DNA of 64,000 bases from Paracyclopina nana (taxonomy: Eukaryota; Arthropoda; Copepoda; Cyclopoida; Cyclopettidae). The stretch lies in NCBI GenBank assembly GCA_019096065.1, contig JAGUCH010000001.1, positions 9,858,001-9,922,000 of the forward strand, in the 5' to 3' direction. The position numbers were made by a program, and so were the translations under genes. Shown piece after piece: positions 8,001-59,371 of the stretch. Below the pieces are notes generated by a model. It did no database searches and was not told where the DNA came from. It saw nothing but the letters and a program-made list of their open reading frames with translations. Positions within the stretch are counted from its first letter, which is position 1; the number at the start of each line of letters is the position of its first letter.

Positions 8001-8283
8001 TGTGGTTATCCTTTTCTGAGACTGTGGAGCTAAGCGAAGACGCAGAGAGCATTCCTTCATCTTCCTTGCTCTGACCTCCCCCCGTTCCTTCTTCGGCTTC
8101 TTTTGCGTTCAGCAAGGGCTCGTGTTTAGGTTTAGCAATGCGCCTCCCCTTAACAATTGAATTAGCAATACGCTTATTACCTGAAGAATGGTTCGTCGAT
8201 GGTCCTGCTTGTGGCTCGAAATCATCCGATGATGAAAACCCGCCTTGGGTCGAGTAATTTTCTCTTGGGTTAGAATTAGCCAT
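5077..8283 (-). CDS. Retrotransposon ORF3: exonuclease-like domain plus zinc knuckles
   Basis: The frame is open from 8412, but the first ATG is at 8283, giving 1,068 aa. It lies between pol and the polypurine tract, where an env would be. The N-terminal ~290 residues are Ser/Glu/Arg-rich and low complexity, then a mostly helical segment. Roughly 5833-6504 encodes a region that aligns by eye with RNase D/WRN/EXD2-type 3'-5' exonucleases: GKIAVICVNLPG, then LPEEIVDMLTSKEVVKCQFG, AADRRLESLG and VVDLTNVA, then a terminal EYIKLVHYSGIIL helix. The motif I D-x-E position reads Y-N-T and the motif III Asp position reads Val, while the motif II Asp in AADRR remains, so the fold is probably catalytically dead. 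The C-terminus has Cys/His knuckles (CPRCG...C, CTTCQAVGH...H). No signal peptide or convincing envelope TM is seen. A spliced or subgenomic RNA would be needed for expression. The exonuclease assignment is inference. Confidence 0.75.
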   Translation of the reverse strand: MANSNPRENYSTQGGFSSSDDFEPQAGPSTNHSSGNKRIANSIVKGRRIAKPKHEPLLNAKEAEEGTGGGQSKEDEGMLSASSLSSTVSEKDNHKRSKSKLSRRVQRRTSSPDELIDPPPRAQPRRAPKDIPARRKSSTRRIVTVEFEPEREVVELSESSDGGLEEDGDNNDVTIVHEGRRVVTVEDDDVLLEPTGQDQPMPYEAEDRVAAAAARGESVAVMEPYVASQGNSNAPTQNDKKSIIPWSKQKIALLSEFKIAVGSPAGASDSRVADWELERFAMEDKFKATVYYVNELLAMDPDKMAEKLRSPTTHIMGPMEDYGEKLISDTRSEGERLVRPLQALNKEMFRLVSLQNGMAPLQVISLTYPELYPLISARTTYWMQLNRTPVYLPALPQAERARAKEHWKMIARCLRKVRLEGMEAAQAMDEEQDDIMEGLIGALAKAELPENPTPEVLTRFRDLVKLSPEQAVMAEQKAAFPQPEASQFRIRAALAADEAPQAYPPFPKDAYIREFCCPKLHPMRDNQEAFDIALKGTVKCTDVRCKLSSSYVKKKDKRILDKIEKVLGQYSLREAAIDVAGKEGRFDCRKNGPVNMLVLDDATPPVVVEEDFAAFMEDVYKYNFCSVYNTPWNRVQTAILKQAGKTPTNGVTTVTLASLTGKIAVICVNLPGVNQQPEKLQLPEEIVDMLTSKEVVKCQFGLAADRRLESLGVVMQNVVDLTNVAVLAFPQPGVQPGSILNNVSYVAHRLRLPHVPCALKNIESTGKPKKPDYADVEMNHLVDDFAAPVEDWPRHMIEYIKLVHYSGIILVVAMAVAAAQSCNLGPQADVLPLIHHLLALVEDQPRFGEQLRSVGFNALPFGSASPLLPDVGSPPEWTKFHLAQPSCFTNSGALLLTKFGQLGKFHALDPDAICPQFKSALEEVFAKPLEYVNLQDAVNRIFASGKYGVHQCPRCGSVEHIAKEHCAQKKVKCIYPRCQKKEEHTIAVCPHVIARCTTCQAVGHVSADHEVPYFILKNEHLFACLLHCQGIQILADLVVSVTSNDLGSKLHVSGKNLSLEAMPLSLRE

Positions 8284-8679
8284 TTTGACGTGTTGACACG
8301 TTGAGTATTCGTACTTGAATGACGAAATGACAACAAAACGCCGGGTGGTCGCTTCGTCGTGCAGAGTTGCCAGGTGTTGTTGGCTATTTTTGTATTTACT
8401 GACTTTTACCAATCTCGTCGCCGTATTGGCAACAAAAGGTTTCTTAAGGCAATATTTGTTTTAAAAGCTTCGAAATGTTTTACTTTTATTGTATCTCATC
8501 CGAATGCAAAATTGTAACTGCTAAAAATTCCGCGCGATGAGCAACTCAGTGGCGAGGCGCATTGCTGAAATCTCAGCTGCCAATCTGGTAACTCTCCTAT
8601 CGCGTGTGCGCGGAACGATATAGCGGGTTCTCGCGCAACCTAGTGAATAACAACAAGATTACATACAATCAAAACTCGC

Positions 8680-13002: not shown

Positions 13003-13044
13003 GACAATGTTCCCTGTTGAGTCAGGGCAGCCTGTATTTTGTCA
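13003..13044 (-). promoter_or_regulatory. Candidate gag-pol stop-readthrough site
   Basis: Gag and pol share a frame and are separated only by UGA at 13044-13042. The context is CAA-UGA-CAA; a C after UGA is a known leaky context, and CAA-stop-CAA echoes the tobamovirus type. Thirteen sense codons link the stop to the first pol ATG. Recoding is inferred. Confidence 0.5.
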
Positions 13045-16000
13045 TTGGCTTTCCTTTTTGACCATGGTTTCCACCAAAGATGCAACCATGGCAGTGAGCT
13101 TGTCGATACTCTCTTGTTGTTTTGCCAATGTGGCTGTGACCGGTGATGCTTCAGTCTTCTTTTCGTCCTTCTCTGAGTGATCCTGTTTTCGCTTTCCAGC
13201 TTTAGCTGCCAATGCTTCAAAAGATTCATGCAGCAGAGCATGATGCTGGCTACTGCCGCAGTTCCCACAGGTTGCAGTGGAGGTGCATGATTTCCAGTGG
13301 TGGGCCCCGTTGAGGCATTTGAAACAGGCTTTTGAATTTCTGGCTTGGAAGAACCGCTTAGGATGCTCCATGGCCAAGAACTCCGGACACATGGAAATCT
13401 TGTGTTCTTCTTTGCAGAAGGGGCAATGCGCAAACGTGAAGTGAGCATCTTGCTTGATACTCAAGACCAGCGATGTGCTGTCTGCGTATTGCTCCCAGTC
13501 TTCATCCTCTAATTCTTTGATTGAAAAGGTGACCTTTCCAGGAACGTATGGCTTTGAAAAGAAAGGTTTTCTGTCTTCAAACTTTCTGGTGGGGAAGACA
13601 GGTTTTTGCTCCGTATTGGGCTTTTCCACTAGTGGCTTGTCTGGCAGCTCTCCATAGGTGAGTCTGACTTGTGTGGAGGCCCATTCGTGGAATAAGTCTA
13701 GTGTCATCGAGACTGCTCCTTTGGTGGTGAGGAAGGTGTTAATGTGGTCACGAGTCCCTGGGGCCAGTTTGATATTTTGTATAGCCAGTGTGGCGAAGGC
13801 TGACTGGCTCGTCTTGTCCATGACTCCTTTTGTGCACGCTTTTAGCTGGGCCAGGAAATCTAGGATGTGCTGTCGGGCAATCCTTACCGTGTCACGTTTT
13901 TGCATGTCTACTACTGGCAGAAGCTGCAACTGATGGGTGGCATAGGCGAGCAGCCTCTCCAGGTTGTAGTACTCCTCATCCAAGTCTCGTAGGGCTTGCT
14001 TGTACCCCGTTTTGGTCCTTGGTTGGTTCTTCACAAAGTGATGGGCTGGTCCTCCTCGCGTAGCATTCTTCAGCCTGATGTATTTCTCTTGGTATGACAG
14101 ACCAGCCTCTCGGTGGATGAATTCCCTGAAATCCAGCCTGAATTCGTGGTAGGCATACCGATCGGTTCCATCAAAGGTTGGAGCTTTGAGGTTGTCAAAC
14201 TTGATTGGTCTGTGCTGCTTCTTGTGTCTCACCACTGCGTAGCTGGAGCTAGAAGATGCTGAGGACGAAGAGCTGGAGGAGCCATGTCTTTTAGAGAACA
14301 GCTTTTTCTTTTCTCTTTTTGCTTTCTTCTCTCTCTCTTCGTCTGTGTCCACCGTGGCATCCGTGGCCCAGAAGTCATTTTCATCCTCCTCGGAGCTTGC
14401 CCTTTTCTTCGACTTTTTCGACTTTTTCTTCCCCTCATCGTCTTTCTTGGAACTCCTTGAGCTTTTTGAGGTTCTAGAAGACTTGCTCTCGTTGTCCGAA
14501 TTGGGTTCTTCTTTGACTCTGACATCTCTTTCATATGAGTCCGTGAATGGGTTGTAGAAAAGCTTGGAGCCCTTGGGAGTTCTAGGCTCTTTGGATTCCT
14601 TGATGGCTTTTGCCTTTTTTGCATGCTTGTGTTGGTCTACCCATTTGTAGGCAGTCTCAAGAAGGATGTCATATTTGGTGTCTACGCCGTCGGCCTTTTT
14701 GGCCTTTTCCTCATCCATGGACAGCAAGTCATTCCAGTATTTGATCCAGAGCTCCAGGCAAACTTCCAACTCCTTGATCCTATACGTGGCTTTTTTGACG
14801 TCTTCCCTGGAGTAGTCAGAGTATTTGATGGTGTCGACCATGTTGCGCGCTGCCTGCTCTACATAGAGTCTGGCCTGCTCCACTGCGTGTTCCTTATTGG
14901 CAACCTGCTTTTCACGCTTCTCTTCCTGTCCGTATTGGAGGTTCGATTTTGCAGCCTTGTGCAATTTGCCCAGCAAATTGGCATTTGGAGGTTTGAGCCT
15001 TCTTTCTTCGGCTGCCAATTCCGCTGCCAGACTTTTTGGGTCCACGTCTCCTGAATCCGTCACATATAAAGGTGATGCCGAAGGCTTTTCTTTGGTTGGT
15101 AAACCTTGAGGGATTTCTTCAGTGGGTGAGCTTCGTTTAGACGAGAACTGTGTTGGATTCTTTGCCAGAGCGTGCTTTGCTCCTTCCACCGGCCTCTTGG
15201 CTGGGCCCATGGGCCTGTTAGCTGGCTTCGGCGGAGGAGTTCTCCCCGCATCCAAGTTGGCTTGCATCTGATGGTAAACCCTTGCGGAGAAGGCTTCCTT
15301 GAAGGCCCCAAGTTCATGGTTTGTTTCGTCGATATCCTTGATTAATTCTTCTTCCTGAGCTGCTAGTTGGGCCTCTCTAAGTTCCGCGGCTTCAGCCGAC
15401 TCGCTGAGGATTGAGGTGGCAATCTTAATGGCCGAGTAGGAGCCTGCGACTGTGCTTAGCAGGTTTTCAGATACATCCAAGCTGAGGGCCTTGTGCACGT
15501 CCTTGTATTCCTGCTCGATGTTGATTAAATCAATTCTTTCCATATCCATGTTTTCCATCATCATTCTGATGCTGGACGCAGCGGTGTCCTCGGACCTGAC
15601 CGCATGACGGTAATCTTTGGTCATGGCATTGATGTCCTTGACCTTCTTATTGAGAGCATTCCTCAATGTGGTAGCCCTATTTTGAAGCTCCATGCGCCGA
15701 GCGTTTCTTTTCAGCCTTTCTTCTTTATCCTTGTCCTTTTCGGATGGAGTGCTGCTTTTGGCTTTGGTTTTGGAGTTTTTAGGCTGGCCACCCTTGTTGC
15801 TTGGATTTTGGCCAATCCCAGAGGTACCCGCCTTAGGGCTTTCCTCCACTAAGGTAGGATCCGTGGGCGATATGGACGTGTCATCGCTTCCTTGGTGGCT
15901 CGATGGTCCCGCCTTGGACCTTGTTCCAGACCTGGTATCTGGCATGGCTGGTGACAGGTTGAGGAATCCTCTGACCTCTTCGAGAGACTCTACCCTGTGC

Positions 16001-16119
16001 CCCTGGAGCGACCGTTCAGAAAAGAAGGGCGACGACCGAATTGGTGAAGGCGATCTTCCAAAGAGGGTTTTTCTCGCCGATGGAGGATGAGGCAACTTTG
16101 GCGTGGAATGATCGCTCAT
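13042..16119 (-). CDS. gag: BEL/Pao gag with zinc knuckles
   Basis: 1,025 aa from the ATG at 16119 (the open frame begins at 16128 with TTG). Residues ~80-620 are rich in Lys, Glu and Ser with predicted coiled-coil character. A DUF1759-type capsid region follows (FDGTDRYAYHEFRLDFREF ... YYNLERLLAYATHQL). Three Cys/His clusters near the C-terminus (CPFCKEEH..MC, CFKCLNGAHHWKSC, CGNCGSSQHH) match Pao-type nucleocapsid. The ORF ends at TGA 13044-13042, followed in the same frame, 13 codons later, by the first pol ATG. Gag would form the particle and bind element RNA. Confidence 0.92.
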   Translation of the reverse strand: MSDHSTPKLPHPPSARKTLFGRSPSPIRSSPFFSERSLQGHRVESLEEVRGFLNLSPAMPDTRSGTRSKAGPSSHQGSDDTSISPTDPTLVEESPKAGTSGIGQNPSNKGGQPKNSKTKAKSSTPSEKDKDKEERLKRNARRMELQNRATTLRNALNKKVKDINAMTKDYRHAVRSEDTAASSIRMMMENMDMERIDLINIEQEYKDVHKALSLDVSENLLSTVAGSYSAIKIATSILSESAEAAELREAQLAAQEEELIKDIDETNHELGAFKEAFSARVYHQMQANLDAGRTPPPKPANRPMGPAKRPVEGAKHALAKNPTQFSSKRSSPTEEIPQGLPTKEKPSASPLYVTDSGDVDPKSLAAELAAEERRLKPPNANLLGKLHKAAKSNLQYGQEEKREKQVANKEHAVEQARLYVEQAARNMVDTIKYSDYSREDVKKATYRIKELEVCLELWIKYWNDLLSMDEEKAKKADGVDTKYDILLETAYKWVDQHKHAKKAKAIKESKEPRTPKGSKLFYNPFTDSYERDVRVKEEPNSDNESKSSRTSKSSRSSKKDDEGKKKSKKSKKRASSEEDENDFWATDATVDTDEEREKKAKREKKKLFSKRHGSSSSSSSASSSSSYAVVRHKKQHRPIKFDNLKAPTFDGTDRYAYHEFRLDFREFIHREAGLSYQEKYIRLKNATRGGPAHHFVKNQPRTKTGYKQALRDLDEEYYNLERLLAYATHQLQLLPVVDMQKRDTVRIARQHILDFLAQLKACTKGVMDKTSQSAFATLAIQNIKLAPGTRDHINTFLTTKGAVSMTLDLFHEWASTQVRLTYGELPDKPLVEKPNTEQKPVFPTRKFEDRKPFFSKPYVPGKVTFSIKELEDEDWEQYADSTSLVLSIKQDAHFTFAHCPFCKEEHKISMCPEFLAMEHPKRFFQARNSKACFKCLNGAHHWKSCTSTATCGNCGSSQHHALLHESFEALAAKAGKRKQDHSEKDEKKTEASPVTATLAKQQESIDKLTAMVASLVETMVKKESQ

Positions 16120-16364
16120 AAGTTGCAATCGACAATGACTCGGTAGCTATGTGCTTACCGCATGCAATACGCATTTCATTTAGTTTAGAAAGGTTTATTT
16201 GTCATGAGCAATGCGCAAAATGACAGAAGACTACAAAATTACTCATTTACTAAGTGACTTCGTCTCTTCCTTCAGGTGTGTGGTGATGTACAGCGTCGGC
16301 GACTAGTCAACTCCGTAGATCCACCAGTGATGGGGCGGCTTCCTCCCTTCAGGTTGAAGTTCGT

Positions 16365-44089: not shown

Positions 44090-44729
44090 GATACAGCAAA
44101 TTCATTGAAGTAGAAGCAGTTGCAAATAAATCAGCCATTATTTAGACTGAGTCTCAGTTAAGTAATTAACTGACTCAGCAACTCTAAATGTTGAGCTAGA
44201 GAGCTCCAAAAAGGGCAAGTGTCCCAAAAGCAGAGCAAAGGACTAGAGAGAGTGGACTTTTCATTTTCACCCATCGGGAATTGCTCAGCGATTAGCCCAT
44301 TACCCTACCGCACCAACTGCAACCTACCGATATCAGCACAGTCAGCTGATTTCAAAACTACTGAGTCACTTCCTCAGCACGCTGTATCTCAGAAACGGTG
44401 AGAGATATCCAAAAACTTATTTTGTAAAAGTTGCTCAGCACCCCTAAATACCCTTGTAAACCAAATCTCAGCATCTCAGCTAAGTGACTCAGCAATCCAA
44501 AATGAGCAGATACATCAAAGTCATTGAAGCAAAAGTTGTTGCAAATAAATCAAACATCATTTTGACCAAGTCTCATCAAAGTAATCAACTGACACAACAA
44601 CACAAATGACAAGATACAGCAAAGTTGTTGAATCAAAAGTTGCTGCAAATAAATCAGATATCATTTTGACTGAGTCTCAGCATTGTCAACTACTGACTCA
44701 GCTACTCTTAATGTTGAGCTAGAGAGCTG
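44090..44729 (+). repeat. Degenerate tandem repeat beside the giant transposon
   Basis: A ~120-nt motif (GATACAGCAAA..TCATTGAAG..AAGTTGCTGCAAATAAATCAG...TGACTCAGC.ACTC.TAATGTTGAGCTAGAGAGCT) is seen at ~44093-44210, ~44505-44600 and ~44608-44728. The transposon begins directly after the last copy. Confidence 0.6.
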
Positions 44730-45015
44730 AAAGGGGCTGGCAAATGGGTCACTATGATTTGACACAAATGAGGCATTGCTTTTTTTGACTATAGGCCTAC
44801 CCAATTTTTTTTGCTCAGCTCTTCAGGGGCCCCATTGGGACTCCAAAACACCAAGGATTTTTTCTCTGCGTAACCGGGAAGTGTCTCAAATTGAGGATTT
44901 TTTTCAGCCTTGCCATCCGCCATTTCACGAATTTTTTTTATTTACATTTTCAAATATTTTCCGTCAAATTGCCGCGCATTAGTTACGTAGCGCTCCCTGT
45001 AGTGACGTCATCATC
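44730..45015. repeat. Left terminal inverted repeat of the giant transposon
   Basis: Matches the reverse complement of 57380-57666 with only scattered differences, for example CCATTGGGACTCC against CCATGGGGACTCC; divergence rises in the innermost ~70 bp. Confidence 0.9.
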
Positions 45016-45104
45016 ATTCACAGTTGGTGAAAAACAAGAACAGCAACAGGCCAACAGCTGATTTTCTCAGAAAAAAGAGGAAGCAAAAAAGGTGGATGAA
45101 ACAA

Positions 45105-45440
45105 GGCATTCACAGCCAAAAAGCCTCGAATTCGGCCGTCAAAAAGCCTCGAATTCGGCCGTCAAAAAGCCTCGGATTCGGCCGTAAAAAAGCCTCGGAT
45201 TCGGCCGTCAAAAAGCCTCGGATTCGGCCGTCAAAAAACCTCGGATTCGGCTATAAAAAAGCCACGGATTCGGCCGCAAAAAGGCCACGGATTCGGCCAT
45301 CAATCAGCCTCAACATTCACAGTCAATAAGCCTCGGATTCGGCCGTAAAAAGCCTCGGATTCGGCCGTAAAAAAGCCTAGAATTCGGCCATAAAGCAGCC
45401 TCAACATTCACAGTTAAAAAGCCTAGGATTCAGCCGTCAA
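45105..45440 (+). repeat. Left subterminal minisatellite (AAGCCTCGGATTCGGCCGTCA)
   Basis: About 14 units of ~22 nt; inverted counterpart at 56570-57130. Such arrays often contain transposase-binding sites (inference). Confidence 0.85.
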
Positions 45441-45441
45441 T

Positions 45442-47165
45442 ATGATACGAGTGAGGGGCCGAGTTGTGGCTGCTAATCCATGTACCAGTTCACCAGACCT
45501 CAGCCAACATTGTGGAGGCGAAGGATATTTGATGGGCCACGCCTACGGCCTCACAAGCACCCCTCACCTCGGCTGCCTGTACTATGGAGTACAGTGGAAA
45601 CGAAAGACCCTCAAAAGAAAAGAGGGTGTGTTGGGGGAGTGACTGCAAACCCATGGACTAGTTCACCAGACCTCAGCCAAAATTCTGATGGCCAAGGATT
45701 TTTGATGGGCCACGCCTACGGCCCCACAAGCACCCCTCACCTCGGCTGCCTGTACTATGGAGTACAGTGGAAACGCAAGACCTTCAATATGACACGAGGG
45801 AGGGGCCGAGGCGTGGCTGCAAACCCATGGACTAGTTCACCAGACCTCAGCCAAAATTCTGATGGCCAAGGATTTTTGATGGGCCACGCCTACGGCCCCA
45901 CAAGCACCCCTCACCTCGGCTGCCTGTACTATGGAGTACAGTGGAAACGAAAGACCCTCAAAAGAAAAGAGGGTGTGTTGGGGGAGTGACTGCAAACCCA
46001 TGGACTAGTTCACCAGACCTCAGCCAAAATTCTGATGGCCAAGGATTTTTGATGGGCCACGCCTACGGCCCCACAAGCACCCCTCACCTCGGCTGCCTGT
46101 ACTATGGAGTACAGTGGAAACGAAAGACCTTCAATATGACACGAGGGAGGGGCCGAGGCGTGGCTGCAAACCCATGGACTAGTTCACCAGACCTCAGCCA
46201 ACATTGTGGAGGCGAAGGATATTTGATGGGCCACGCCTATGGCCTCACAAGCACCCCTCACCTCGGCTGGCTGTACTATGGAGTACAGTGGAAACGCAAG
46301 ACCTTCAATATGACACGAGGGAGGGGCCGAGGCGTGGCTGCAAACCCATGGACTAGTTCACCAGACCTCAGCCAAAATTCTGATGGCCAAGGATTTTTGA
46401 TGGGCCACGCCTACGGCCCCACAAGCACCCCTCACCTCGGCTGCCTGTACTATGGAGTACAGTGGAAACGCAAGACCTTCAATATGACACGAGGGAGGGG
46501 CCAAGGCGTGGCTGCAAACCCATGGACTAGTTCACCAGACCTCAGCCAAAATTCTGATGGCCAAGGATTTTTGATGGGCCACGCCTACGGCCCCACAAGC
46601 ACCCCTCACCTCGGCTGCCTGTACTATGGAGTACAGTGGAAACGAAAGACCCTCAAAAGAAAAGAGGGTGTGTTGGGGGAGTGACTGCAAACCCATGGAC
46701 TAGTTCACCAGACCTCAGCCAAAATTCTGATGGCCAAGGATTTTTGATGGGCCACGCCTACGGCCCCACAAGCACCCCTCACCTCGGCTGCCTGTACTAT
46801 GGAGTACAGTGGAAACGCAAGACCTTCAATATGACACGAGGGAGGGGCCGAGGCGTGGCTGCAAACCCATGGACTAGTTCACCAGACCTCAGCCAAAATT
46901 CTGATGGCCAAGGATTTTTGATGGGCCACGCCTACGGCCCCACAAGCACCCCTCACCTCGGCTGCCTGTACTATGGAGTACAGTGGAAACGAAAGACCCT
47001 CAAAAGAAAAGAGGGTGTGTTGGGGGAGTGACTGCAAACCCATGGACTAGTTCACCAGACCTCAGCCAAAATTCTGATGGCCAAGGATTTTTGATGAGCC
47101 ACGCCTACGGCCTCACAAGCACCCCTCACCTCAGCTGGCTGCTCTGTGATACCTTGGTCCTCTAT
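45442..47165 (+). repeat. 174-bp tandem repeat (~10 units) with open frame
   Basis: GACTAGTTCACCAGACCTCAGCC recurs about every 174 bp (58 codons). Two unit endings alternate: TTCAATATGACACGAGGGAGG keeps the frame open, and CTCAAAAGAAAAGAGGGTGTG ends in an in-frame TGA. The repeated peptide contains WTSSPDLSQ..., GHAYGPTSTPHLG and YYGVQWKRKT. No splice or start logic makes it a gene. A single diverged inverted relative lies at ~56320-56515. Confidence 0.85.
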
Positions 47166-47251
47166 TAAACTGAATTTTAAAAAAGCTGCTTTACTAGAAT
47201 CTTAAAACTTTTAAGAAATCTTAAATGATGCTAATAAATATATTATGTTTA

Positions 47252-50200
47252 TCACTGTTTTTTATACAAAAACACTTGGCATTTTGAAACTCCAGCAGAC
47301 ATCTTTATGGGATGGCCTCCATCCACCTCAAAAAATGAGCTGTCATCAAGAACATGAGCAGTGTAGTGCCCTGAATCCAGAGAGCCTTTGTGCTCAATAG
47401 CTGACACCAGCTGGTAGCTAGCAGACTCCCCCATTGTTGGTATGGCTAGAATTCCTCCAATGTCAACAGGGGCCTCCACTTTTTGACTTTGGCCATTACT
47501 CCACAAGATCCTATTGATGGAAACTACAAGGATTGGTGTGGGATTGTTGAAGACCTTCTTCAGCTTCTCAGTGTAGGCTTGACCACAACTGCTGCATTTT
47601 CCCTGTCTTTGGTGGGAGAATGAGTCTTGTATTGCCTCCTGTAGAGTACTCATTGGGAATTCCATTGAGTAAACACCAACCACAGTAGGTTGAGAACACT
47701 GTGTGAATGATTTGCATCCACAACCTGACTTTGTGGTGACCTCTACAATTTCAGGCTGAGCAACTTCAGCCAAAAGACATCCTGGGCTTACATCATCTGG
47801 CAGCAAGGCAAAGAAGAAGTCCTCAGCTGCTTTGTACTCAGCCAAGTAGGAGTGGTCTCTTTTGAGCTCTTCAACAAAGAGTTTCAAAAGAGGCTTGTCT
47901 TCAACTGTCACACTAGTGGCAACTTGTATCCATTTTGTCATGGCAGCATTAAAGCCATCTCTTGGCTGAGGCAGATCACTCCACCTAGTTGTCTCTGCTG
48001 CCAAGCCTGACTGTCTAATTGCCCAGAGCAAACTAACCACACCAGAGGCCAGCCAACAAGAGGTGCTGGAGCTGTTCTTGATCTGCACAAGCCTCAAGTT
48101 GCCAACAGCATGAACTGTAATATAAATATACTGTCAAAATCAATCCTTAGAGTGACACTTGTAAAAGGCTACTCACTTTGAGCCTGATAATTGAAGCTGT
48201 CCAGGGGCTCCTCATCAACCTCCATAGCTTCATCTGGTTGCTCTTCTTCAGATATATCTGCTATGGATGGCTCATCATCTAGGACCAAGTGGGATGACTC
48301 TGGAGGGTCATTGACAAGGTCAAGATCATCTAGTTGAGTAGTGTCAAGGCCTTCAATAACAGATTCTTGATCATCGTAATCTTCGAATCCTCCAACCATT
48401 GGATCATCATCCTCATCAGAGTCTTCAGCATCTCCATGGCCATCAGGGAAAACCTTCATTCAAAGAGCAGGCCTTAATGCATTATGATATTATTTTTAAA
48501 AAGTTATTTGCACCTTATTGAAAGGATGCTTTGGTTGCAGGTGGTCTGGCTTCCTAGTGTCAGTCAAGGGCATTGGGCACACAATTGGACTCTCCCACCA
48601 AGGACACAAAAGCAGTAACAGAAATGCCAAAGGATGAGCTCCTAAGCCCATCATTCTGCTGCATACATCAGGGACTCTTGCCTGGAAAGCAGTTAAGTAA
48701 GATTCAAAGAAACAATGAGTGCAATCAAGTACCTTGTTGGAGCATCTCCAGCCAAAGAGGGACTGTAGCCCAGACTTGAGGTCCAGTTTTGTGTTGGGCT
48801 GGTTGGCAAAGGCAATCATGACCTCTTTTCTGTACTGCTTTGCCTTGGAACTCCTATTGGCAGATGGAAACCTTGTGTACAATATCAACAGTCCATCTTT
48901 TGGAAACTCTCCAAACTCCTCTATGTCCCAATCATCTGGGCATTCCTCCAAGAGCCTGGCCTTGATCTCTAATTTTTGAGGTCTCTTCCTACAAGCTGCA
49001 ATAAATTCTTCATGGCTTTTAAAGTCACCAAGGCAGTCCTCCAGCTCAGCCCTTCTTGCCAAAGTAGTATAAAAGCCAGCTCTTTTCCAGCGATAATTGC
49101 CCATGGCTTAAGAAAAAATATTATTTTTTTCAAAAGACAATTTGTAGCACATTTGATCCTACCTAAGTCCATTATTGCAGACTTATCTTTCTCTTCTAGC
49201 ACTGGAATTTTGATAGGAAAGTGATCTCTCATGGCATCAAGGTCACTCAAGGGAAAAGTGGTCCAGTTCTTGTCATTTTTCCTTGGGAAGCCATCTAAAA
49301 CAAGCATTTTATGTGAGATCAGTACATGTATTGTTTAACTCACCAATCTTAAATGGAAACTTCACTTTGGACTCAAAAGGATTGATGAGATTGAGCCTCT
49401 TGTCAATCAAATTAGCCAACTCTTCTTGCTCCTCCTCATTGGCAAATTTCACATGAAACTTGGCATGGCTCTGGTTGTATGCTCCTATACTGCATCCATA
49501 GAGGATCTGGAGCTTAGATATGGTAGCATACTCCTGGTTCAGCCTAGGAAAATAATTGTTGAAGTCTGACTGGTTCTTTTGGAGCTTATGCTCTTACCCA
49601 AGCTTTTTGGCCATTGGATAACCAATTGGTTCAAGAAAGTGGTATTGGAGAGGAGTTGTCCATATTTTGTCCTGTTTTATGGCAGCATGAGCCATTTCAA
49701 CTCCTTATTAAGAAAGAAAAGAAACATTAAGTTACAGATGTTGAAAATCTAGTTGATTCACCTTTTCTCAAAGTGCCAACCAAACACTTGTGGTTTAAGA
49801 TCTTGCTCTCAAGGCCATCCAGCCCTTTGGTGCTGACTGGTTCAATCTTTTTGGTTGCACCTGAGAAAAATAAAAAAAATGACATACATGCCATAAGAAG
49901 ATGCAAAAAGTAACTCACTGTTAAACTGCATTATTTCTTCAGGGTCAGGGCCAAGAGGAGCAATAAAGACAGCACCAGACTTGAGGCAGTAATCCTTCAA
50001 AGTTACTAGATTGCTCATATCAAGGTTGTGGGGCACAAAATCATAGCCCTTGTCCACAATGACAAGTGCAAAATGCTTTTCAGTACCCTTGAGGATGTTG
50101 ATCATGCCCAAGTCCAATTTGCAGCCAGCCTGTTGAGCCTTGATCTCATCACTGATTATTTTGCCCATTATAACAGTGTCACCATGTGCAGGTGAGATGC

Positions 50201-52540
50201 TAGCACTGGTCATACTGAAAGCAACTACATGACCTTCAGCTGTTGTGACATTGGTGATAGTACCACAGTGGCCTGAAATAAAAGCATCAAGTTTACTTCT
50301 AAAATCACATTTGAGCAACATATGGTCTTACATGCATTTTTGGCACTGTAGGTACTCTTCTGAAACTCCATATCAGAACTCTTTTGAAAAGGTATCTTGG
50401 TGGAGTCAATGATGACCAGGTAAGGAGTCCTGTCTTTGCCAAGAGGATCAGCAAACTTAGAGGTAATGGACTTCATTTGAACACTCTGCCGTTTGATCAT
50501 CTGCTCAAAGGCAATGTCTTTTTCTGAGTCTGTCAAGTCAAGCCTTGACCAGAATCCAAACTCATCGACAAGGGTGGAATAGTGCACCAAAGCACAGTTC
50601 CAAAATGTGTTAGAGACACCTTGCTTGGTCAGTTGGAAGAGGATTGACAACAGATCATTGGAAAGGTTGTGTCGTAGCTTGAGCCTGAACAGAACCACTG
50701 TAGCAGGGATTGACAGAGAGGTGTGCTTTTTGGAAAGCCCATTTGAAGCCAAGGTCTCAACCAGAGTCCAAAACTCCTTGGCATTCATGCCAACACATTT
50801 TTGGAGTTCCATCTCAGTCAGATATGAAGGATTCATAAACTTGTTCCTCCAAGCTGTCTCAGCATTGGGATAAGCATGTGGTTTATGCCTCCCATCCTGG
50901 AGATGCTTCTTGTATTCAGAAAGCCCAAGCTCATGAACAAGGCTATCAAGCTCACTTCTTCCCTTCAGATGGCTATCAATTTGAGGAGGATTCAGCAAAG
51001 ATACCTTCCAAAAGTTGTCATCAATGTCAATGATTTTGAAGCACTTGCTGCGTGGACTCAGCACTTCTTCAGAAAGCCTAAAAACCTCCTTTCTACCGTC
51101 ATCAACAACTTTGATGTTTTTGGGCACCTTGATAGCATTTTCTCTGCCTGACTTGCACTTTTCAGCCAGCACTTTCTTGTAGAAGCTCCTAGACTTTGTG
51201 GTACCATATGCCTCAAAGTTAAGTGCTCTATCCTGGAGGGAGGGACTGATGGCAGGAAAAATGCCTGGGATTGACACTTTCTCCTCTGATAGGAGCTCAA
51301 ACAGTTGCAATGGAGTGAACTGATGCAACAATTCCACAAGCTTTGAATTTGGACTTTTCTGACTGTAGGTTTGGAACTCTGCTGAGGACTTGGAAGCTCT
51401 GAAGCAGTAGTGGCTGTCCAAATTGTAGCTTCGAGAGAAAGTTTTTCCACAGGTCTGACATTGGACACTCTTTTTGGGCTCATGGATTCCACGTGTGTGT
51501 CGGAAAAAGTTCTTCCTTGAACAGTCTGTCTCAAGCAGATGAAATGACCTATCATCATTGCACTTATGGCAAAAGCCATAGTGAATTGGAGCAGGCAGCT
51601 GAAATTGAAAAATTGAATCAATTAAGTAAGCTCAAATGGGGATGAAACATAAAAAATCATGACAATTATTGTACTATACTTTGATGCGCAATATCTCGGC
51701 AACGGAGCGTCAGAGCTGACTCCTTTTTGCACCCATGAATTCACGTTGAGCACCTCTACAACTTTTATTACTAGTGCAAACCTCTAAGATCACTACCGCA
51801 ACGGCGGCCTCTACCGCAACGGCGGCCTCTACCGCAACGGCGGCCTCTACCGCAACGGCGGCCTCTACCGCAACGGCGGCCTCTACCGCAACGGCGGCCT
51901 CTACCGCAACGGCGGCCTCTACCGCAACGGCGGCCTCTACCGCAACGGCGGCCTCCACTCCACAGCCTCTATTGCACCTTGGGCACTTCAAGACCAGAAA
52001 AGGAGCTGAACAGAGTAGTCCTAACAACTAGCCATTTTTTCTTACCTTGGATGGAATGTCCCTATCAGGTCCTGAGCAGCGGAAAAATGTTATTGATGTG
52101 TCACACTTGACCAACTTTTGGAGCAACTTTTGGACATCAATAGAGCTAAGGTTTTCAGCACTTTTTTTCCCAACGGTCAAAAGTTTATCTCCAGCCAATA
52201 TTGTCAACTCAAAGATATCACTTAAGAAATGCTGATTATCATCTGTTCTGAGCCTGTCTAGCAAATCTTCTTGCAAATTGAAGAGAACCTTAACATGAAG
52301 ATTTGACTTCATTGTTGTGCAGTTGTATCCAGACTGAATTAGATTGCATTTATTCATCAGTGAAAGGAGCATGCATTTAAAAGCCTCAAATATCAACATG
52401 CTCAACAGGGTGCAAATAATGAACTCTTCACTCATGCACTGGAAGATATCAAGTCTCAGGAAACAATGCAAGAGTATTAAAAGGGTTTCAAGTGTGTGAT
52501 TGCCCTTAATTAATGAATTAATGGAGCTATTTAGAGACAT
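47252..52540 (-). CDS. DDE transposase fused to a USP-like cysteine protease
   Basis: Eleven exons in continuous phase: 52540-52046, 51598-50332, 50272-49919, 49860-49762, 49703-49598, 49543-49344, 49294-49163, 49106-48733, 48681-48514, 48453-48177 and 48114-47252; 1,444 aa. Residues ~170-230: two C2H2/C2HC-type fingers. ~440-490: a helix-turn-helix (LRHNLSNDLLSILFQLTKQG) like those preceding DDE_4 domains. ~560-735: DDE core with D564 (IIDSTKIP), D661 (VIVDKGYD) and E723 (GLESKI) as likely catalytic residues. ~740-1050: unrecognised, with WKRAGFYTTLARR and a Leu-rich patch. ~1065-1155: very acidic linker. ~1158-1444: USP/C19-like protease with C1177 (SSSTSCWLAS), zinc-site Cys pairs, H1407 (SGHYTAHV) and D1422. 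It could cut and paste the element while removing ubiquitin or a related modifier. The USP call rests on Cys and His boxes. Confidence 0.82.
51786..51959. repeat. 18-bp minisatellite in the first intron of the transposase gene
   Basis: About nine near-identical copies of GCGGCCTCTACCGCAACG inside the intron 52045-51599. The unit is open in several frames and far more GC-rich than its surroundings. Confidence 0.88.
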
Positions 52541-52583
52541 TTCAGCTCAAAATCTCAATAAATCTGGGATTCAATTCAATTGA

Positions 52584-54031
52584 CTAATTGTTCAATACTG
52601 CTAGCTCTTGAATGATTTCCTCTCTATTGATGACATTAGGCAAGTCATGATTCTTGAGATCAATTTGGCCAGATCTCCTGGCTAGAAACCAAGCAACCAA
52701 TCCAGACACAATTGGGAGGATCAGTTCCAGGATCTCCACTGGCACTGAATTGAGGACATCATTAATCCAAGGAATATTAGGTACAGTCTTTCTGGCATTT
52801 CCCCACTTGAACTCCAGTCTTTCCTCATCTGTGTGGGCACTTTTTGGCAACAGGACATGAATATTAAGCAGGTTTTTCTTCCTGGAGTAGGACCTTATTA
52901 CAGGAATGACTCTGAAAGAATATCCAATTAATAAATGCAAATCAATATTATCACAACTGTTGTTACCCTGGCTTAAAGGCATCTGCAGCTTTGAGATCAA
53001 TGTATTCCTTTCTTGGGTAGAGCTCTTGATTTTTTTGACCCACAATTCTCTCTAATTCATCAAGTCTTATCATATCTTGGGACAAACTTTGCTGGTTGGG
53101 ATTCATTAGATCTGAAAACATACCATTGTCACATCCTTGCTCTATTTATAAAAGAACATAATATTTACCTAATGTTAGATCTAATGACACATCACACAGC
53201 CAATTAGTCTGATCAGAAAGTTGGCTAAGCTGATCATCTATGAACATGAATGATGCCAGCAGAGTTATCTTGTCATCCTGCTCCGACATTTTCAGGGCTC
53301 CTTTGTCAAACTGAGGCCTTGAGAAATCCTCAATTATGGCCTTGGTCAAGTCCAAAATGTTTCCCTCAAGGACTAACTCTCCATATCTATACATAAATAA
53401 TCCAATGTATGCTATTGAGCAATATAATTAAAAAGTGTATGTACCTGGCTACACTGTCAAAAAAGCCTTCAACAAAGGCTTCCAAATTATGATGGTCCTC
53501 TTTATTGACAGACCAGCTGTCATTGACCTCCACAAAATCACCATCTTCCATGCTTTTGGTCTTCACATCGATGGCTGTACCTTTAAGGGCCTCATACTTT
53601 GAAAAGCACCTTGCAGCCCGTTTCTCCAGACTTCTAAGTCTCCTGAGAGCTTTTCCCCTTATAATCACATCTGCTGATGCAATAGCTGCACGCCATTCGG
53701 CTCTTGGATGCAATCCATCCATCTGAAATTAGAAATTAGCTATAAGATTTGCATTCACAATTTGTACTTTCTTACTTTTGGCTCCCTTGGGATGAAGAAA
53801 CTGCCATTTATAAGGGTTTCAATTCGAAAATGAATTTCCTCTTGGTGGAAAGAGAACTCATTCTCTATTTTGGTCAAGTCTAATCTGAGATTGATTGGTG
53901 CAAAAGTATCAACCTTTTACAAAATATAGTGTTTAGAATCATCACAACAATAAAATGGAGTAAATAAAGCTTACCTCCTCTTGTCCTTTACACAAGACAA
54001 ATATAAGGATCAGTGTGGTAGAAAAAAGCAT
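52584..54031 (-). CDS. Predicted type I membrane protein carried by the transposon
   Basis: Six exons in phase: 54031-53975, 53913-53776, 53722-53445, 53386-53169, 53111-52967 and 52911-52584; 387 aa. Residues 1-~16 form a hydrophobic signal peptide (MLFSTTLILIFVLCKG). A luminal region of ~320 residues follows with NGS and NDS glycosylation sites, few cysteines and a basic helix (RRLRSLEKRAARC). One hydrophobic segment (~336-356, ending GLVAWFLA) is followed by RR and a ~30-residue tail. The stop lies just 43 bp from the start of the neighbouring transposase gene on the same strand. I do not recognise the family; signal peptide, ectodomain and C-terminal anchor are generic and could be a captured receptor or an envelope-like protein. 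The exon 1/2 junction has a weak polypyrimidine tract. Confidence 0.62.
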
Positions 54032-55596
54032 TGTTGAAAAGCACTTTTAAAAGTATTACAATCTAGGGATTTCCTTGCAACTATCTTCAATCAAATTCAG
54101 CTTGTGAATGAAGCAGTCTTCCCATGGGAGGATTGTGTTGCACAAAGAAAATTCATGCTATAGCTTCAACCGCCACTTACTGCAGGCAGTATTAGGTGAT
54201 TTGAACAACAGGGCTTTGTTGGCAGCATTTTTGCCAAATCAATGCTGTGATTCCTTGATGTAGGCCAAATCTTGTAGCCAGCCACAAATTGTAGATTTTA
54301 TCAGCCTTTACCAGTAGATTTTGCGACGTACATTTTACCAGCCTCAAAACAGAGATTTTGCGAATCGCGTAACTTAGATTTTGGCAGATTCCTTGATGCA
54401 TTTGCAACACTCATTTTTGAGCAAATGTACTAAAATGCGAGACATACGTGATACAGGCAATACACACGACAACCTACACGAGACACATGACACCTAAAAT
54501 ACGCGACTTTCAACTCTCAGCTATGCGCTTAAAGCCTGTAAGCATTAACAACATATTAGGTATTTTAGCATTATAATAAGCCAAGCGCCTAGCCAAAAAA
54601 GCCTACAAGTCCTAGCTTTGTCGAATTCAGCACCACTAAAACTCTTAATCCATTTTTTAGCTTGTTGCAATCAAGGTAGGCTTTTTCCATTCTTTCAGCA
54701 TTTAAAAAAGTGCTAATAAAAGCTCTTTGCATTTTTAAAGAACAGTTGGGCATTTTAGGCCTCCTGGTGGTGAGCTTTGTCCCATTGAACTGATGTAGCT
54801 TTCTAAAAATAAGCTTATTTTCACACAGCATTGCTTGGTGAGATTTTGACCAATGAAAAAATATTAAGGGCCTGTCACCTGCTCTTTATGGCTGATATTT
54901 TGGCAAAATATTGGAGAGAAATGCTGAGGAACAAAGAATTATTAAATTGGTGTAGGTAGAGCTCTAGATTCCCATTATATCTATTTATATATGTAAACAA
55001 TTTGTAAAACAAGTTAACAAAATATCATGGTCTCTGGTCAAACAGAGGAGCCACACACCTTATAAAATACTTTATAACGTAAGTCACTTGATGAAGTAAG
55101 ACACCAGAGTTTTTATAAATGTGTAGTTGAATAAACAGAAACGAATTGGTAAACTAAATTATACATGCGAAAAATGCTTTCCATCTTATAAAAGATTTTA
55201 CAATTACCGGACAGGGATTTTGAACCACTATGTACTAGCTTTTTTGAAAAAATATTAGAATGCATTATTTTATATTCTAAATAAATCTCGTCAAACTGTT
55301 GTGTGTTAAAACCTAAAGGAAGCGATCCCCATATTCTTTTCATAAAATGCCAATAATGCGACAATTTTTTGTCCTTTTTTTGGCCATACCAATGGCCAAT
55401 CCTTTGGTCTGTATTGAGAAAAAGGGTCCAGCATTTGTGGAAACCACTACTACAGACGGGTTGTGCTACTTTAAAGTAAGTATTGACAAAAGATTTTGCA
55501 TCACCTAAAAACAGCACTCAACAATTCTCTAAGCTAATGGCTGGTTTAGTGTAGTTAAATTATATTATCTTTTTAAAAGGTGTATTTTTGTTCCAG
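54032..55596. other. Transposon interior without a confident gene
   Basis: Two minus-strand ORFs (54831-54589, 80 codons; 55517-55113, 134 codons) have protein-like composition but no recognised motif or splice connection. On plus, ATG 55356 opens a hydrophobic leader-like stretch ending at a good donor (55475), but its phase does not fit the exon at 55597. Confidence 0.4.
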
Positions 55597-56020
55597 TGTG
55601 AAAATGGAAAGCTGACTAAGGCAGGCGTGACCATGAGCTCTTTGCATGCCAATATTTTTAAATATGACACCTGCAAAGTTGATCGGTGAGTGATTTGTCT
55701 ACAACTTGGGACTCTTTGAATGTTGGAATAAGCTCTAACTCAACTCATCTCTAGGTGCAACTTGGACCCTTGCCATCCTGAAGGCTCCAATAATGCCCAC
55801 ATTTATGGTTGGGCATTTGGGGCTGTTAGCTGCTTTGCTGCAGCAGCTGGCTGTTGGGCCATAGCCTTCTACAAAAGAAGGTGATTTAGGTCTGGTTCAC
55901 TGCCTATAATTAGCCTCACAATTTGTATTTCTTAGGTGCTCTAAAAATGTGGATGGCCCAACTTTGAACGCTACAGAGCTGACTTTCCTGCCAACCTCAA
56001 CTTCTTCTTTTGGACCCTAA
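55597..56020 (+). CDS. Small Cys-rich single-TM protein, 5' exon not found
   Basis: Three exons in phase: 55597-55685, 55755-55880 and 55936-56020, each with good GT-AG borders, ending in TAA. They encode ~99 residues: a Cys-containing ectodomain (CENGKL, YDTCKVDRCNLDPCHPEG), one TM segment rich in Gly/Ala/Cys ending in YKRR, and a short tail with a potential NAT glycosylation site. The only plus-strand gene of the element, it faces the other genes. The initiating exon is missing from my model; the nearby leader-like ORF at 55356 is out of phase. Function unknown. Confidence 0.5.
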
Positions 56021-56319
56021 AAATCATCATCTCTTAACAAGACATCAAAATTCAGATTTCAACAACAATTAGTAGAAAATCAAAATTCACTTTTCAACTG
56101 CAATCAATTGGACATCAAAATTATTTCTGATATTTTATCCCTATTTTTGGCTATTCAGAAAAAAAATCAAATTCACATCTTGAAAAACAAAAAGTTCTTA
56201 TTTGTGGAGTGTTTATTCACTGACTGGACTTATTGAGAGAACTGCTATAATATTTCTTTTTTTTTTCAGTGTCAAAATGGAAGGCAGCCTCTGGAGTTGA
56301 TCCAGGACATTTACATCAC

Positions 56320-56515
56320 AATTCAAAGGAGTGGTGAATGGGTCTCTTCTAGCAGCTGAAGGACCAAGTCGAAGTGGAAAGCAACACCGGCAGCAAAGTG
56401 GCGGTCTTGAGCCCAATAATGGAAGCAATCCAAATGCGTGGTCTGAAGCATTTGGCAGGGCTGGCGGCTGATGTCTGGAGAACTTGTCCATGAGTTTTCA
56501 GCCATGACCTGCCTT
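56320..56515 (-). repeat. Diverged inverted copy of the 174-bp unit
   Basis: On the minus strand it reads NSWTSSPDISRQ and later HYWAQDRHF, resembling NPWTSSPDLSQ and the YYGVQWKRK part of the left array. It supports the mirror symmetry of the two transposon ends. Confidence 0.5.
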
Positions 56516-56569
56516 GCCTTCTAATGCTAATTGAAGGTCTCTTTTTTCAAGGCTTCCAATGCGTTTCCA

Positions 56570-57130
56570 AGGCATTTTGACAATGAATATTGAGGCTGCT
56601 TTGACGGCCGAATCTAAGGCTTTTTGGCAATGAATATTGAGGCTGCTTTGACGGCCAAATCCAAGGCTTTTGACGATGAATATTGAGGCTGCTTCGACGG
56701 CCGAATCCAAGGCTTTTTGGCAATGAATATTGAGGCTGCTTTGACAGCCAAATCCAAGGCTTTTTTACGATGAATATTGAGGCTGCTTTGACGGCCGAAT
56801 CCAAGGCTTTTTGGCAATGAATATTGAGGCTGCTTTGACAGCCAAATCCAAGGCTTTTTTACGATGAATATTGAGGCTGCTTTGACGGCCGAATCCAAGG
56901 CTTTTTGGCAATGAATATTGAGGCTGCTTTGACAGCCAAATCCAAGGCTTTTTTACAATGAATATTGAGGCTGCTTTGACGGCCGAATCCAAGGCTTTTT
57001 GACGATGAATATTGAGGCTGCTTTGACGGCCGAATCCAAGGCTTTTTTAGTGATGAATATTGAGGCTGCTTCGACGGCCGAATCCATTTTTGAATGTTTG
57101 GGCTTCTTTGATGGCCGAATCCAAGGCTAT
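56570..57130 (-). repeat. Right subterminal minisatellite
   Basis: TTTGACGGCCGAATCCAAGGCTTTTT-type units, partly arranged in ~45- and ~95-nt higher-order repeats, with ATGAATATTGAGGCTGC spacers; inverse of 45105-45440. The several long ORFs here follow from the repeat. Confidence 0.85.
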
Positions 57131-57379
57131 TTGACGCCAAATTCCGTAATGGAAGGTCAGGCATTTTCGCTTTGCTCAACAGAGCTATCACCCAAGGTGG
57201 GTCCAGTGACCGAATATTCAGCTCGTATGCTTTTTCTTCCTTTATTTCGGCTTGTTTTTCACGGGAATTCTAGGCTCTTTTTTCACTCTTTGGCTGAAAA
57301 CCACAGAGCTCGAATTCTGTTTCGCGCCGCGCACATTGTAGCTGTTTTTGTTTTTTTCCAGCTAAGTGCTGACTGCTGA

Positions 57380-57666
57380 GTGACGTCACACAGTACAGTG
57401 GGAGCGCTACGCAATTAACGAACGGCAATTTGACGGAAAAATTAAAACTCCGTGATTAAAAAAATTCGCGTAATGGCGGATGGCAAGGCTGAAAAAAATC
57501 CTCAATTTGAGACACTTCCCGGTTACGCAGAGAAAAAATCCTTGGTGTTTTGGAGTCCCCATGGGGCCCCTGAAGAGCTGAGCAAAAAAAATTGGGTAGG
57601 CCTATAGTCAAAAAAAGCAATGCCTCATTTGTGTCAAATCATAGTGACCCATTTGCCAGCCCCTTT
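57380..57666. repeat. Right terminal inverted repeat of the giant transposon
   Basis: Reverse complement of 44730-45015; ends CCATTTGCCAGCCCCTTT. Confidence 0.9.
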
Positions 57667-59371
57667 AATATGTAAGTAGCCCTTGATGTCCCCATAATTT
57701 CTTATTTCATAAAATTTTCTGTGAGACCGCTCCTTCTGGGGCCCGTTTTCCATACTTTGACCCCCAATATCACAGCAAAGGATCGTCTGAACTCCTCTTC
57801 AAGTTGGTACTTCATAGTCAAGGGCATAAAATGACTTGGGAAAAAGTCGAGTTTTCCCAAGGGGGGCCTTAGAAAAAGTTGCCGATTTTCCAAAGTGCTC
57901 GGATTGAGCTGAAACTTGGTACGATTGTTCTCCATCAGATTCTGAGCAGATAATCTCAAGTAAACATTGTGCGCAGTGTCGCTGCAAGAATACTAAAGTC
58001 CTTGAGAGAACTGCGGATGACTGTGAAATAGTTTTCAACGCTTTAATGAAACTTGGAAGTTTTCAATAAATAGATGTGATGATGATGAATGCTGGAACGT
58101 AACTGAGGTTCTATTTCAGCTGTTGACTACGAGGGGAGGGAAACATGAAAAGGAGCGGGAATATTTAAATATACATAACGAGAAAGAAACTTCAAACAAA
58201 CATATGCCCAAAAACGCTCAGCAGCTGAGTTATTCAGCCTCCCATTTGACCCCATTTTCAGGTTTCTGCTTAATAACTCAGCAGAGTGCTGAGATATATG
58301 AAATGTCTTTACTGATAAATGATCACTGTCTTATGGGCTATAAGAAAGTGTTATCAGTTTTTATCACAGCTCAGCTGGTTCTCAAGGTTTTATGCTGAGC
58401 ATATCTGGCTAAATAACTCCGCTGATGAGCTGTTGAGCACCAAATCCTTTGGTGTGCTGAGTCATGGCATCTAGTAGATCATTTGTGCCAAGTCTATGAG
58501 CTCAAAGTGACTGAAGTTGTCTAAAAATTGCCATAAGCATTGTATGGAGGTCATATATGATGAATCTGAGGCTGCTTGGGTCATTTTGGCCTCCACATGT
58601 TTTGGCTGGCTTCAACTTGGGCAAATGGTCGAGTTAGCTTGACAGTTCTACCTCCTGCTAGTGGGACAAAATTCTTGCGCTCCCCTTACTAATGGGACAA
58701 AAAGGGTCGGCCCCTCACTGATGGGACCACCACCTCAAGACAGTGTAAGGTTGAAAACGCTCTGCACTGCATTAAAATAAGCCTAACTAACTTGGCTCAA
58801 AGTCATGGAACATGAGACAATCTTGTTTTCTACATGTTTCTAGCCTCTGCTAGGCTACAAGAACCAGTTCTTGCTAATTTTGAGATAACAGCCTCAGCCT
58901 CTGAGGTTAGGCAGCCTCAGGCTGCTACCAGCATATGCACCAAAGGCAAGTCCAAAGGTCTTTGAGCTCAAAGCATATTGTCTCATAGCACATTGTCACA
59001 TAGCAAAATGTCACATAGCATATTGGCTTATAACAGATCGTCTCATATCAAATTGTCTCATAGGCATATGTCACATAGCAAATTGTCTCGTAGGATATAA
59101 TGCTATGTGACATTATGGTATGTGCCAATATGCTATGGGACATTATGGTATGTGACAATATGCTATGAGAAAAGGTCCTTTTTTCAAATCAGTAAATATG
59201 ATATAACCTTGTAGCCTTATTGGCAATGGAACATTTTGTTATGTTCCAAGAATATAAAACTAAAAATTTGCAATTTTTTGTAAAGCTGGACACAAGCGCG
59301 TAGCCCAAAATTTGATCTAACACATCTTTTAGCTTCAAAAAGTGCCAAATTCAAAACGCACACTTTTTAAG
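57667..59371. other. No gene seen
   Basis: AT-rich with short ORFs only (58123-58398 has 91 codons, unrecognised). 58972-59172 is a patch of ~16-18 nt repeats around CACATAGCA.ATTGTCTCATA, partly inverted on itself (TGCTATGTGACATTATGGTATGTG). Confidence 0.5.

What the first reader, a model, noticed from the sequence alone, without database searches (positions are those of the whole stretch)
44730..57666. Giant DNA transposon that carries membrane-protein genes as well as its transposase
Seen: ~285-bp TIRs, mirrored subterminal repeats, a transposase gene and two other intron-containing genes between them, two of the products with a TM segment and one also with a signal peptide. Known: PIF/Harbinger and ISL2EU elements normally carry one or two intracellular proteins. 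Inference: this may be an undescribed cargo-bearing or virus-like lineage of large DNA transposon.
Basis: partly seen in the sequence, partly recalled or inferred. Interest (0 to 1): 0.92.

Follow-up and report, generated by a model that had tools for sequence, protein, structure and literature searches.

The report
Jumping gene carrying two membrane-protein genes
A large cut-and-paste DNA transposon carries, beside its own transposase, genes for two membrane proteins that recur and stay under selection in distant relatives of the element, which raises the question of why a jumping gene needs proteins outside the nucleus.

Summary
The element is real: 44730-57666, TIRs of about 265-285 bp, in an unnamed 92-Mb eukaryote. 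Gene B encodes a zinc-finger/DDE transposase fused to a ubiquitin-specific-protease (USP) domain, gene A a single-pass membrane protein, gene C a six-cysteine membrane protein. Of 14 TIR-paired copies, all 4 over 12 kb hold A, B and C. Two other TIR-bounded families in the genome (B roughly 30-50% identical, exon by exon) also hold B, A and C. All three genes show purifying selection. Gene A was found only in DNA that also holds element sequence.

There is no target duplication: four paralogous empty sites for three elements show insertion between AAA and TTT, the signature of Spy transposons (PHIS superfamily), not of PIF/Harbinger or ISL2EU. Other eukaryotic genomes could not be searched and no Spy tree could be made.

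So 'cargo-bearing' is supported in a stronger form: the membrane genes look like old, integral parts. 'Virus-like' is not shown: no capsid or polymerase was recognised, and A and C match no known family. Their function is inferred. Three transposase/USP loci gave no gene A hit.

The parts
44730..44732 (.). AAA, left half of the AAATTT target site
   Evidence: junction aligned with empty sites
44733..44997 (+). left terminal inverted repeat (tip GGGGCTGGCAAATG)
45071..45460 (+). left subterminal array of ~23-bp units
   Evidence: D4
45434..47132 (+). array of ~174-bp units inside the left end
   Evidence: D1, D2; also in the other long copies
47252..52540 (-). gene B, 11-exon model, 1444 aa: C2H2 zinc finger, HTH, DDE nuclease (D563, D661, E741 by my reading), acidic stretch, USP domain (C1177, H1407 by my reading). 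Exon 1 (52540-52046) is the least certain
47252..48114 (-). last exon of B: USP/UCH-type cysteine protease domain
   Evidence: Pfam UCH E 1.4e-9, 38.4 bits, cut-off 23.9; PDB USP8 E 6.5e-4
50332..51598 (-). exon 2 of B: zinc finger, HTH and first catalytic Asp
51775..51958 (.). 18-bp tandem repeat within the presumed intron 1 of B
   Evidence: (D5)
52584..54031 (-). gene A, six exons (54031-53975, 53913-53776, 53722-53445, 53386-53169, 53111-52967, 52911-52584), 387 aa: signal segment, ectodomain with two sequons, TM near residue 337, short tail
   Evidence: homologues
55347..56020 (+). gene C, four exons (55347-55475, 55597-55685, 55755-55880, 55936-56020), 142 aa: signal segment, six-cysteine domain, TM near residue 93
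56481..57137 (-). right subterminal array of ~47-bp units, mirror of the left one
   Evidence: D3, I2-I25
57400..57663 (-). right terminal inverted repeat
57664..57666 (.). TTT, right half of the AAATTT target site

Best explanation
It is a large cut-and-paste DNA transposon of the Spy mode: it inserts between AAA and TTT without duplicating the target. Shown: this insertion site, the TIRs, recurrence of genes B, A and C in three diverged families of one genome, conserved candidate catalytic residues in B, and purifying selection on all three genes. Inferred: recent mobility (near-identical copies), and that B binds TIR and subterminal repeats through its zinc finger, cuts and joins with the DDE domain, and that its USP domain removes ubiquitin from itself or from repair factors at the cut ends. 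Inferred and open: A and C enter the secretory route and sit at a membrane, and they are kept because they raise the element's own transmission. I judge most likely that they act at the surface of the cell that carries the element (recognition, adhesion, or transfer between cells), with manipulation of the host germ cell as the next choice.
For: Empty sites with AAATTT: C7 98.7% and C2 95.8% for the window element, C9 93.1% for the 16-kb copy, C1 99.7% for the C2 family. B, A and C in the window, C8, C1 and C9 long copies and between the TIRs of families C3 (395 bp, 99%) and C2 (436 bp, 95.6%; gene C there read for two exons). A homology across families: hhalign score 54.2, E 9e-7, against at most 20.8 in 100 column shuffles; C3 gene A finds exons 2-6 of the C2 and C6 copies genome-wide at E 1e-8 to 2.5e-5. 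Intron phases 0,0,2,1,2 in the A models of window, C2 and C3, and 0,2,2 in C of window and C3 (counted by me from exon lengths; the C3 boundaries were chosen with C2 in view, so they are not fully independent). Cysteine spacing of C 18-4-25-5-5 and 17-4-26-5-5. dN/dS: A 0.165 (369 codons, p 6e-10) and 0.166 (65 codons, p 7e-4); C 0.219; B 0.039-0.223. C8 and C1 copies are 97.6-99.3% identical in collinear blocks at two sites.
Against: Three loci with transposase/USP (C6:1.57 Mb, C2:10.62 Mb; C1:10.48 Mb for USP only) gave no gene A hit, so A may not be universal. DDE_Tnp_4 scores 20.0 bits against a cut-off of 24.8. My C2 and C3 gene C models have no N-terminal hydrophobic segment, and the window's gene C did not find them in a genome search; that link rests on cysteine spacing, introns and the TM segment. 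No transcript, structure or function for A or C. Gene C-like fragments at C3:7.05-7.07 Mb have no TIR or B hit nearby.
Confidence: 0.8

Rival explanations
1. A and C are captured host genes riding as passengers; they do nothing for the element.
For: Gene capture by DNA transposons is known (Pack-MULEs; PMC6431247, passages); the long copies differ in gene orientation and in number of A copies; three transposase/USP loci gave no A hit.
Against: The same gene set in families whose B is only roughly 30-50% identical exon by exon; selection on A and C in the range of that on B; no copy of A found outside element-like DNA.
Confidence: 0.1
2. A virus-like element: A is a spike or fusogen and C a helper, and the element moves between cells or hosts in a membrane-bound carrier.
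For: A has the layout of a type I surface glycoprotein (signal segment, sequons, TM, short tail); nematode Mavericks are reported to code for a putative fusogen and to move cargo between species (PMC10680173, passage).
Against: No capsid, packaging or polymerase gene recognised; A matches no Pfam family above cut-off, no PDB sequence and no viral contig; no fold available; A has only 1-3 cysteines, signal segment included.
Confidence: 0.15
3. The three genes are unrelated neighbours boxed in by chance between TIR-like repeats, or an assembly chimera.
For: Genes and tandem arrays are interspersed.
Against: Six loci with all three genes (gene C read only in part in one) and a seventh with A and B, sharp ends, empty sites, two near-identical copies at different places.
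Confidence: 0.02

Closest known systems
Spy transposons (PHIS superfamily)
   Same: Insertion between AAA and TTT, no target duplication, related DDE transposase (PMC4482050 and PMC11304231, passages)
   Different: Intact Spy elements are described as encoding transposases of over 500 aa between TIRs; here 13-19 kb, a ~1400-aa transposase with USP domain, two membrane-protein genes, TIRs of about 265-436 bp
PIF/Harbinger and ISL2EU (PHIS)
   Same: DDE_Tnp_4-like nuclease
   Different: Those duplicate TWA or AT and carry a Myb/SANT or YqaJ partner; neither seen here
Ginger1 and Mutator-like transposons with Ulp1/OTU, and a Trichomonas transposase_11 protein with peptidase C19
   Same: Deubiquitinase or SUMO protease joined to a transposase (PMC2836005, passages)
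   Different: Other transposase families; no membrane proteins mentioned in the passages read
Polintons/Mavericks with fusogen (nematodes)
   Same: DNA element that codes for a membrane protein
   Different: Mavericks carry integrase, DNA polymerase and capsid genes (PMC10680173, passage); none recognised here
Teratorn (piggyBac fused to a herpesvirus)
   Same: Transposon with genes beyond its transposase
   Different: 180 kb, derived from a virus (start of abstracts in listings); here 13-19 kb with no viral gene recognised

Membership tests
Spy | Insertion between AAA and TTT without target duplication | tested here: met
   4 empty sites for 3 elements; of 10 window-family copies with both tips resolved, 9 show no flank match of 2 bp or more and 1 a TA match
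Spy | PHIS-type DDE transposase | tested here: inconclusive
   DDE_Tnp_4 E 5.5e-4, 20.0 bits, cut-off 24.8; HTH_Tnp_4 E 0.012. D563/D661/E741 kept in three families by my alignment
Spy | Transposase groups with the Spy clade | not testable with these tools
   No Spy sequences at hand; the large protein database gave no relative of B residues 420-860
PIF/Harbinger | 3-bp TWA duplication | tested here: not met
PIF/Harbinger | Second gene with Myb/SANT domain | tested here: not met
   no such Pfam match in the A, B, C and D models
ISL2EU | 2-bp AT duplication | tested here: not met
ISL2EU | YqaJ partner protein | tested here: not met
   no such Pfam match
Polinton/Maverick | Family B DNA polymerase, integrase and capsid genes | tested here: not met
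   no such Pfam match in the 10 window frames and the models scanned; not every small frame was scanned
USP (peptidase C19) domain | UCH profile match | tested here: met
   above cut-off in window, C9 copy and C3 family
USP (peptidase C19) domain | Catalytic Cys and His | tested here: inconclusive
   C1177 and H1407 are kept in three families, but the Cys box lies outside the profile match and was assigned by eye; the fold attempt failed
Ly6/uPAR three-finger domain (gene C, considered) | Profile match | tested here: not met
   no such Pfam or PDB match; the CxxDxCN resemblance is recalled

The most novel reading that the evidence does not exclude
A capsid-less, cut-and-paste DNA transposon lineage that codes for its own cell-surface apparatus (a spike-like glycoprotein and a six-cysteine partner) and uses it to pass between cells or hosts: a transposon with an envelope but no virion.
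Probability: 0.15. Interest if true: 0.96.

Novelty: new variant of a known kind. Interest (0 to 1): 0.74.

Why it matters
Cut-and-paste DNA transposons are usually seen as nuclear parasites that need only a transposase and perhaps a DNA-binding partner. Here two membrane-protein genes have stayed with the transposase through deep divergence and are under selection, so they probably pay their way. That makes a testable case for how DNA transposons without capsids might act on or leave their cell, a standing gap in explaining their horizontal spread.

Tried and rejected
Target duplications of TTAA, TAA/TWA or AT were considered from the window ends alone and rejected once other copies and empty sites were seen. 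Signs of viral origin were looked for and not found. The large protein database gave nothing even for the transposase, so it says little about eukaryotic relatives. The fold of the USP exon was worthless (mean pLDDT 32, one sequence); nothing is concluded from it. Below-cut-off matches were taken as chance: R2K_2, Extensin-like_C, Met_gamma_lyase, 2CompART and Tmemb_9 to A and C, Lyx_isomer to a B exon, and the weak coronavirus papain-like protease matches of the USP exon (Pfam E 0.71, PDB E about 0.5), which may reflect the shared USP-type fold. The window-versus-C5 comparison of gene A was saturated at synonymous sites and not used; window-versus-C8 comparisons of B were too similar to inform. 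Literature searches on transposons with membrane proteins or ubiquitin hydrolases (two searches found no paper) showed, in listings and passages only, no cut-and-paste transposon with such membrane genes apart from the virus-derived Teratorn.
Full report
What is there. The window lies in an unnamed eukaryotic genome of 92 Mb in 10 contigs. At 44730-57666 two inverted repeats of about 265-285 bp (212 nt at 98%, then 41 nt at 88%) frame 12.9 kb. Just inside lie mirrored arrays of 23- and 47-bp units that share sequence in inverted orientation, and a 174-bp array inside the left end.

Genes. From the sequence I modelled three genes with GT-AG introns, 15 of 18 introns being 49-62 bp. Gene B (minus, 11 exons, 1444 aa) has a C2H2 zinc finger, HTH_Tnp_4 and DDE_Tnp_4 matches, all below Pfam cut-offs, and a C-terminal UCH/USP domain above its cut-off; the best PDB relatives are USP8, USP15 and USP21 (E 6.5e-4 to 0.018). 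Gene A (minus, six exons, 387 aa) starts with a hydrophobic signal-like segment, has two N-glycosylation sequons and one strong TM window near its C terminus. Gene C (plus, four exons, 142 aa) has a signal-like start, a six-cysteine domain and a TM window. Neither A nor C matches Pfam above cut-off or PDB sequences at a meaningful E-value. Exon 1 of B is the least certain part. There is no transcript evidence.

Copies of the same family. A search with the left 286 bases gave 40 matches (40 of 52 candidates scored, so a lower bound). I pair 28 of the 40 into 14 elements. Four are longer than 12 kb: the window (12.9), C8 (18.7), C1 (18.6) and C9 (16.2 kb). All 4 of 4 hold B, A and C sequence. 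The C5 copy (7.7 kb) keeps a gene A in one 403-aa open frame and the USP end of B. The other 9 (1.75-6.2 kb) gave no A or C hit and no hit to the transposase exon; 7 of them keep DNA of the end of B, an eighth (C8, 2.1 kb) a broken USP fragment seen only at protein level, and one (C9, 4 kb) none: they look like deletion derivatives. The window's transposase exon is 100% identical in protein to that of the C8 copy; the C1 and C9 copies show breaks there. The C8 and C1 copies match each other in collinear blocks of 7463, 6373, 3189 and 2391 bp at 97.6-99.3%, so the 18.6-kb unit seems to have moved as a whole not long ago.

Other families. The transposase exon also finds distant relatives (28-33% identity for the five strongest). 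Two were read in full and have their own TIRs: family C2 (C2:14455208-14471174, TIR 436 bp at 95.6%) and family C3 (C3:10461334-10474685, TIR 395 bp at 99%). Between the TIRs both hold B with zinc finger, DDE and USP parts, a gene A homologue (370 and 361 aa, six exons each) and a gene C homologue, complete in C3 and in C2 read only for its first two exons. A C6 paralogue of C2 has A and B; its gene C was not looked at.

Are the genes homologous across families? For A, profile-profile comparison gives score 54.2, E 9e-7, probability 91; 100 column shuffles reach at most 20.8 and the reversed profile 13.3. The C3 gene A finds exons 2 to 6, not the short signal exon, of the C2 and C6 copies across the whole genome at E 1e-8 to 2.5e-5. 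The A models of window, C2 and C3 all have intron phases 0,0,2,1,2 (counted from exon lengths); the C3 boundaries were chosen with C2 in view, so this is not fully independent. Gene C of the C2 and C3 families is 50% identical over 50 residues (E 6e-17), but the window's gene C did not find them in the genome search; that link rests on cysteine spacings 18-4-25-5-5 and 17-4-26-5-5, the TM segment and intron phases 0,2,2. My C2 and C3 gene C models have no N-terminal hydrophobic segment, unlike the window's.

Selection. Nei-Gojobori counts: A, C5 against the complete A of C8, dN/dS 0.165 over 369 codons (Fisher p 6e-10); A, C2 against C6, one exon of 65 codons, 0.166 (p 7e-4); C, window against C9, 72 codons, 0.219 (p 1e-4); B, window against C9, 0.223 (293 codons), 0.080 (124) and 0.039 (117) in three exons. 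Window against C5 for A was saturated. Synonymous divergence between window and C9 differs tenfold among exons of B (0.09 to 1.0), which points to exchange between copies.

Are they host genes? Searches of the whole genome with three versions of A (all candidates scored) hit only the elements named and fragments at C1:15.498-15.508 Mb, where a USP fragment also lies, so probably a decayed element. Gene C hits the elements, C9:670-673 kb beside a TIR match, and C3:7.05-7.07 Mb, where no TIR or B match was seen; the last is unresolved.

Against the reading: the USP and middle-exon searches find three further loci with B (C6:1.57 Mb, C2:10.62 Mb, and C1:10.48 Mb for USP only) and short USP fragments at C5:6.47 and C6:6.38 Mb in which no gene A was hit. 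A may be absent from some lineages.

Insertion. Resolved tips read AAA|GGG in this family, AAA|GAG in C2 and AAA(A)GGAG in C3. Of 10 copies with both tips resolved, 9 have no flank match of 2 bp or more and 1 has a TA match; 4 of the 14 pairs had a tip that the alignment did not reach. Joined flanks of three elements were searched in the genome: the window element has empty sites at C7 (98.7%) and C2 (95.8%), the C9 copy one at C9 (93.1%), the C2-family element one at C1 (99.7%); in all four the junction is an uninterrupted AAATTT. Published Spy elements insert between AAA and TTT without duplication, while PIF/Harbinger duplicates TWA and ISL2EU AT (PMC4482050 and PMC11304231, passages).

How it probably works. 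The DDE core, insertion site and TIRs make cut-and-paste transposition by B the plain reading. Deubiquitinase or SUMO-protease domains joined to transposases have precedents: Ginger1 with OTU or Ulp1, Mutator with Ulp1, and a Trichomonas transposase_11 protein with peptidase C19; a role in repair after cutting was suggested there (PMC2836005, passages). A and C are routed to the secretory pathway if the signal segments work. What they do is inferred: surface action that helps the element spread, or manipulation of the carrier cell. The nearest DNA element with a membrane protein that I met is the nematode Maverick with its putative fusogen (PMC10680173, a meeting report, passage), whose capsid and polymerase genes were not recognised here.

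Limits.

Noticed in passing
window 5077-16146, minus strand: Three long frames (1127, 1453 and 1034 aa) that look by eye like a BEL/Pao-type retrotransposon; not tested against profiles.
   Followed up: no
window 44580-44729 and 57667-57816: The element sits in a repeat with many relatives (69 candidates, 40 scored), a good part of them within about 45 kb of contig ends: a subtelomere-like repeat family.
   Followed up: partly
L053 3111-3437, L054 7336-7665, L058 1334-1711: A fourth small gene (about 95 aa, 45% identical between families C2 and C3, no Pfam match) shared by these families and not detected in the window family.
   Followed up: partly
L053 4447 and L054 5636: A window-family TIR tip lies inside the C2-family elements, between gene A and gene B, preceded by AAATTT or AAATTC: remnant of a nested insertion or an old end.
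   Followed up: no
L009-L010 and L011-L012 (18-kb copies): They carry a complete gene A in opposite orientation to B plus the end of a second gene A that matches the window at 99% only up to window 53070: exchange of modules between elements.
   Followed up: partly
window B exons against the C9 copy: Synonymous divergence jumps from 0.09 (USP exon) to 1.0 (DDE exon) within one gene: mosaic history.
   Followed up: no
G000:C3:7054064-7069884: Gene C-like fragments 15 kb apart with no TIR or transposase match nearby.
   Followed up: no
L056 413-724: The C2-family element sits at the edge of an open frame of a multi-copy sequence; an uninterrupted copy of the site lies at C1:1067948-1068253.
   Followed up: partly
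window 51775-51958: 18-bp GC-rich tandem repeat inside the presumed first intron of B, longer in the C8 copy.
   Followed up: no
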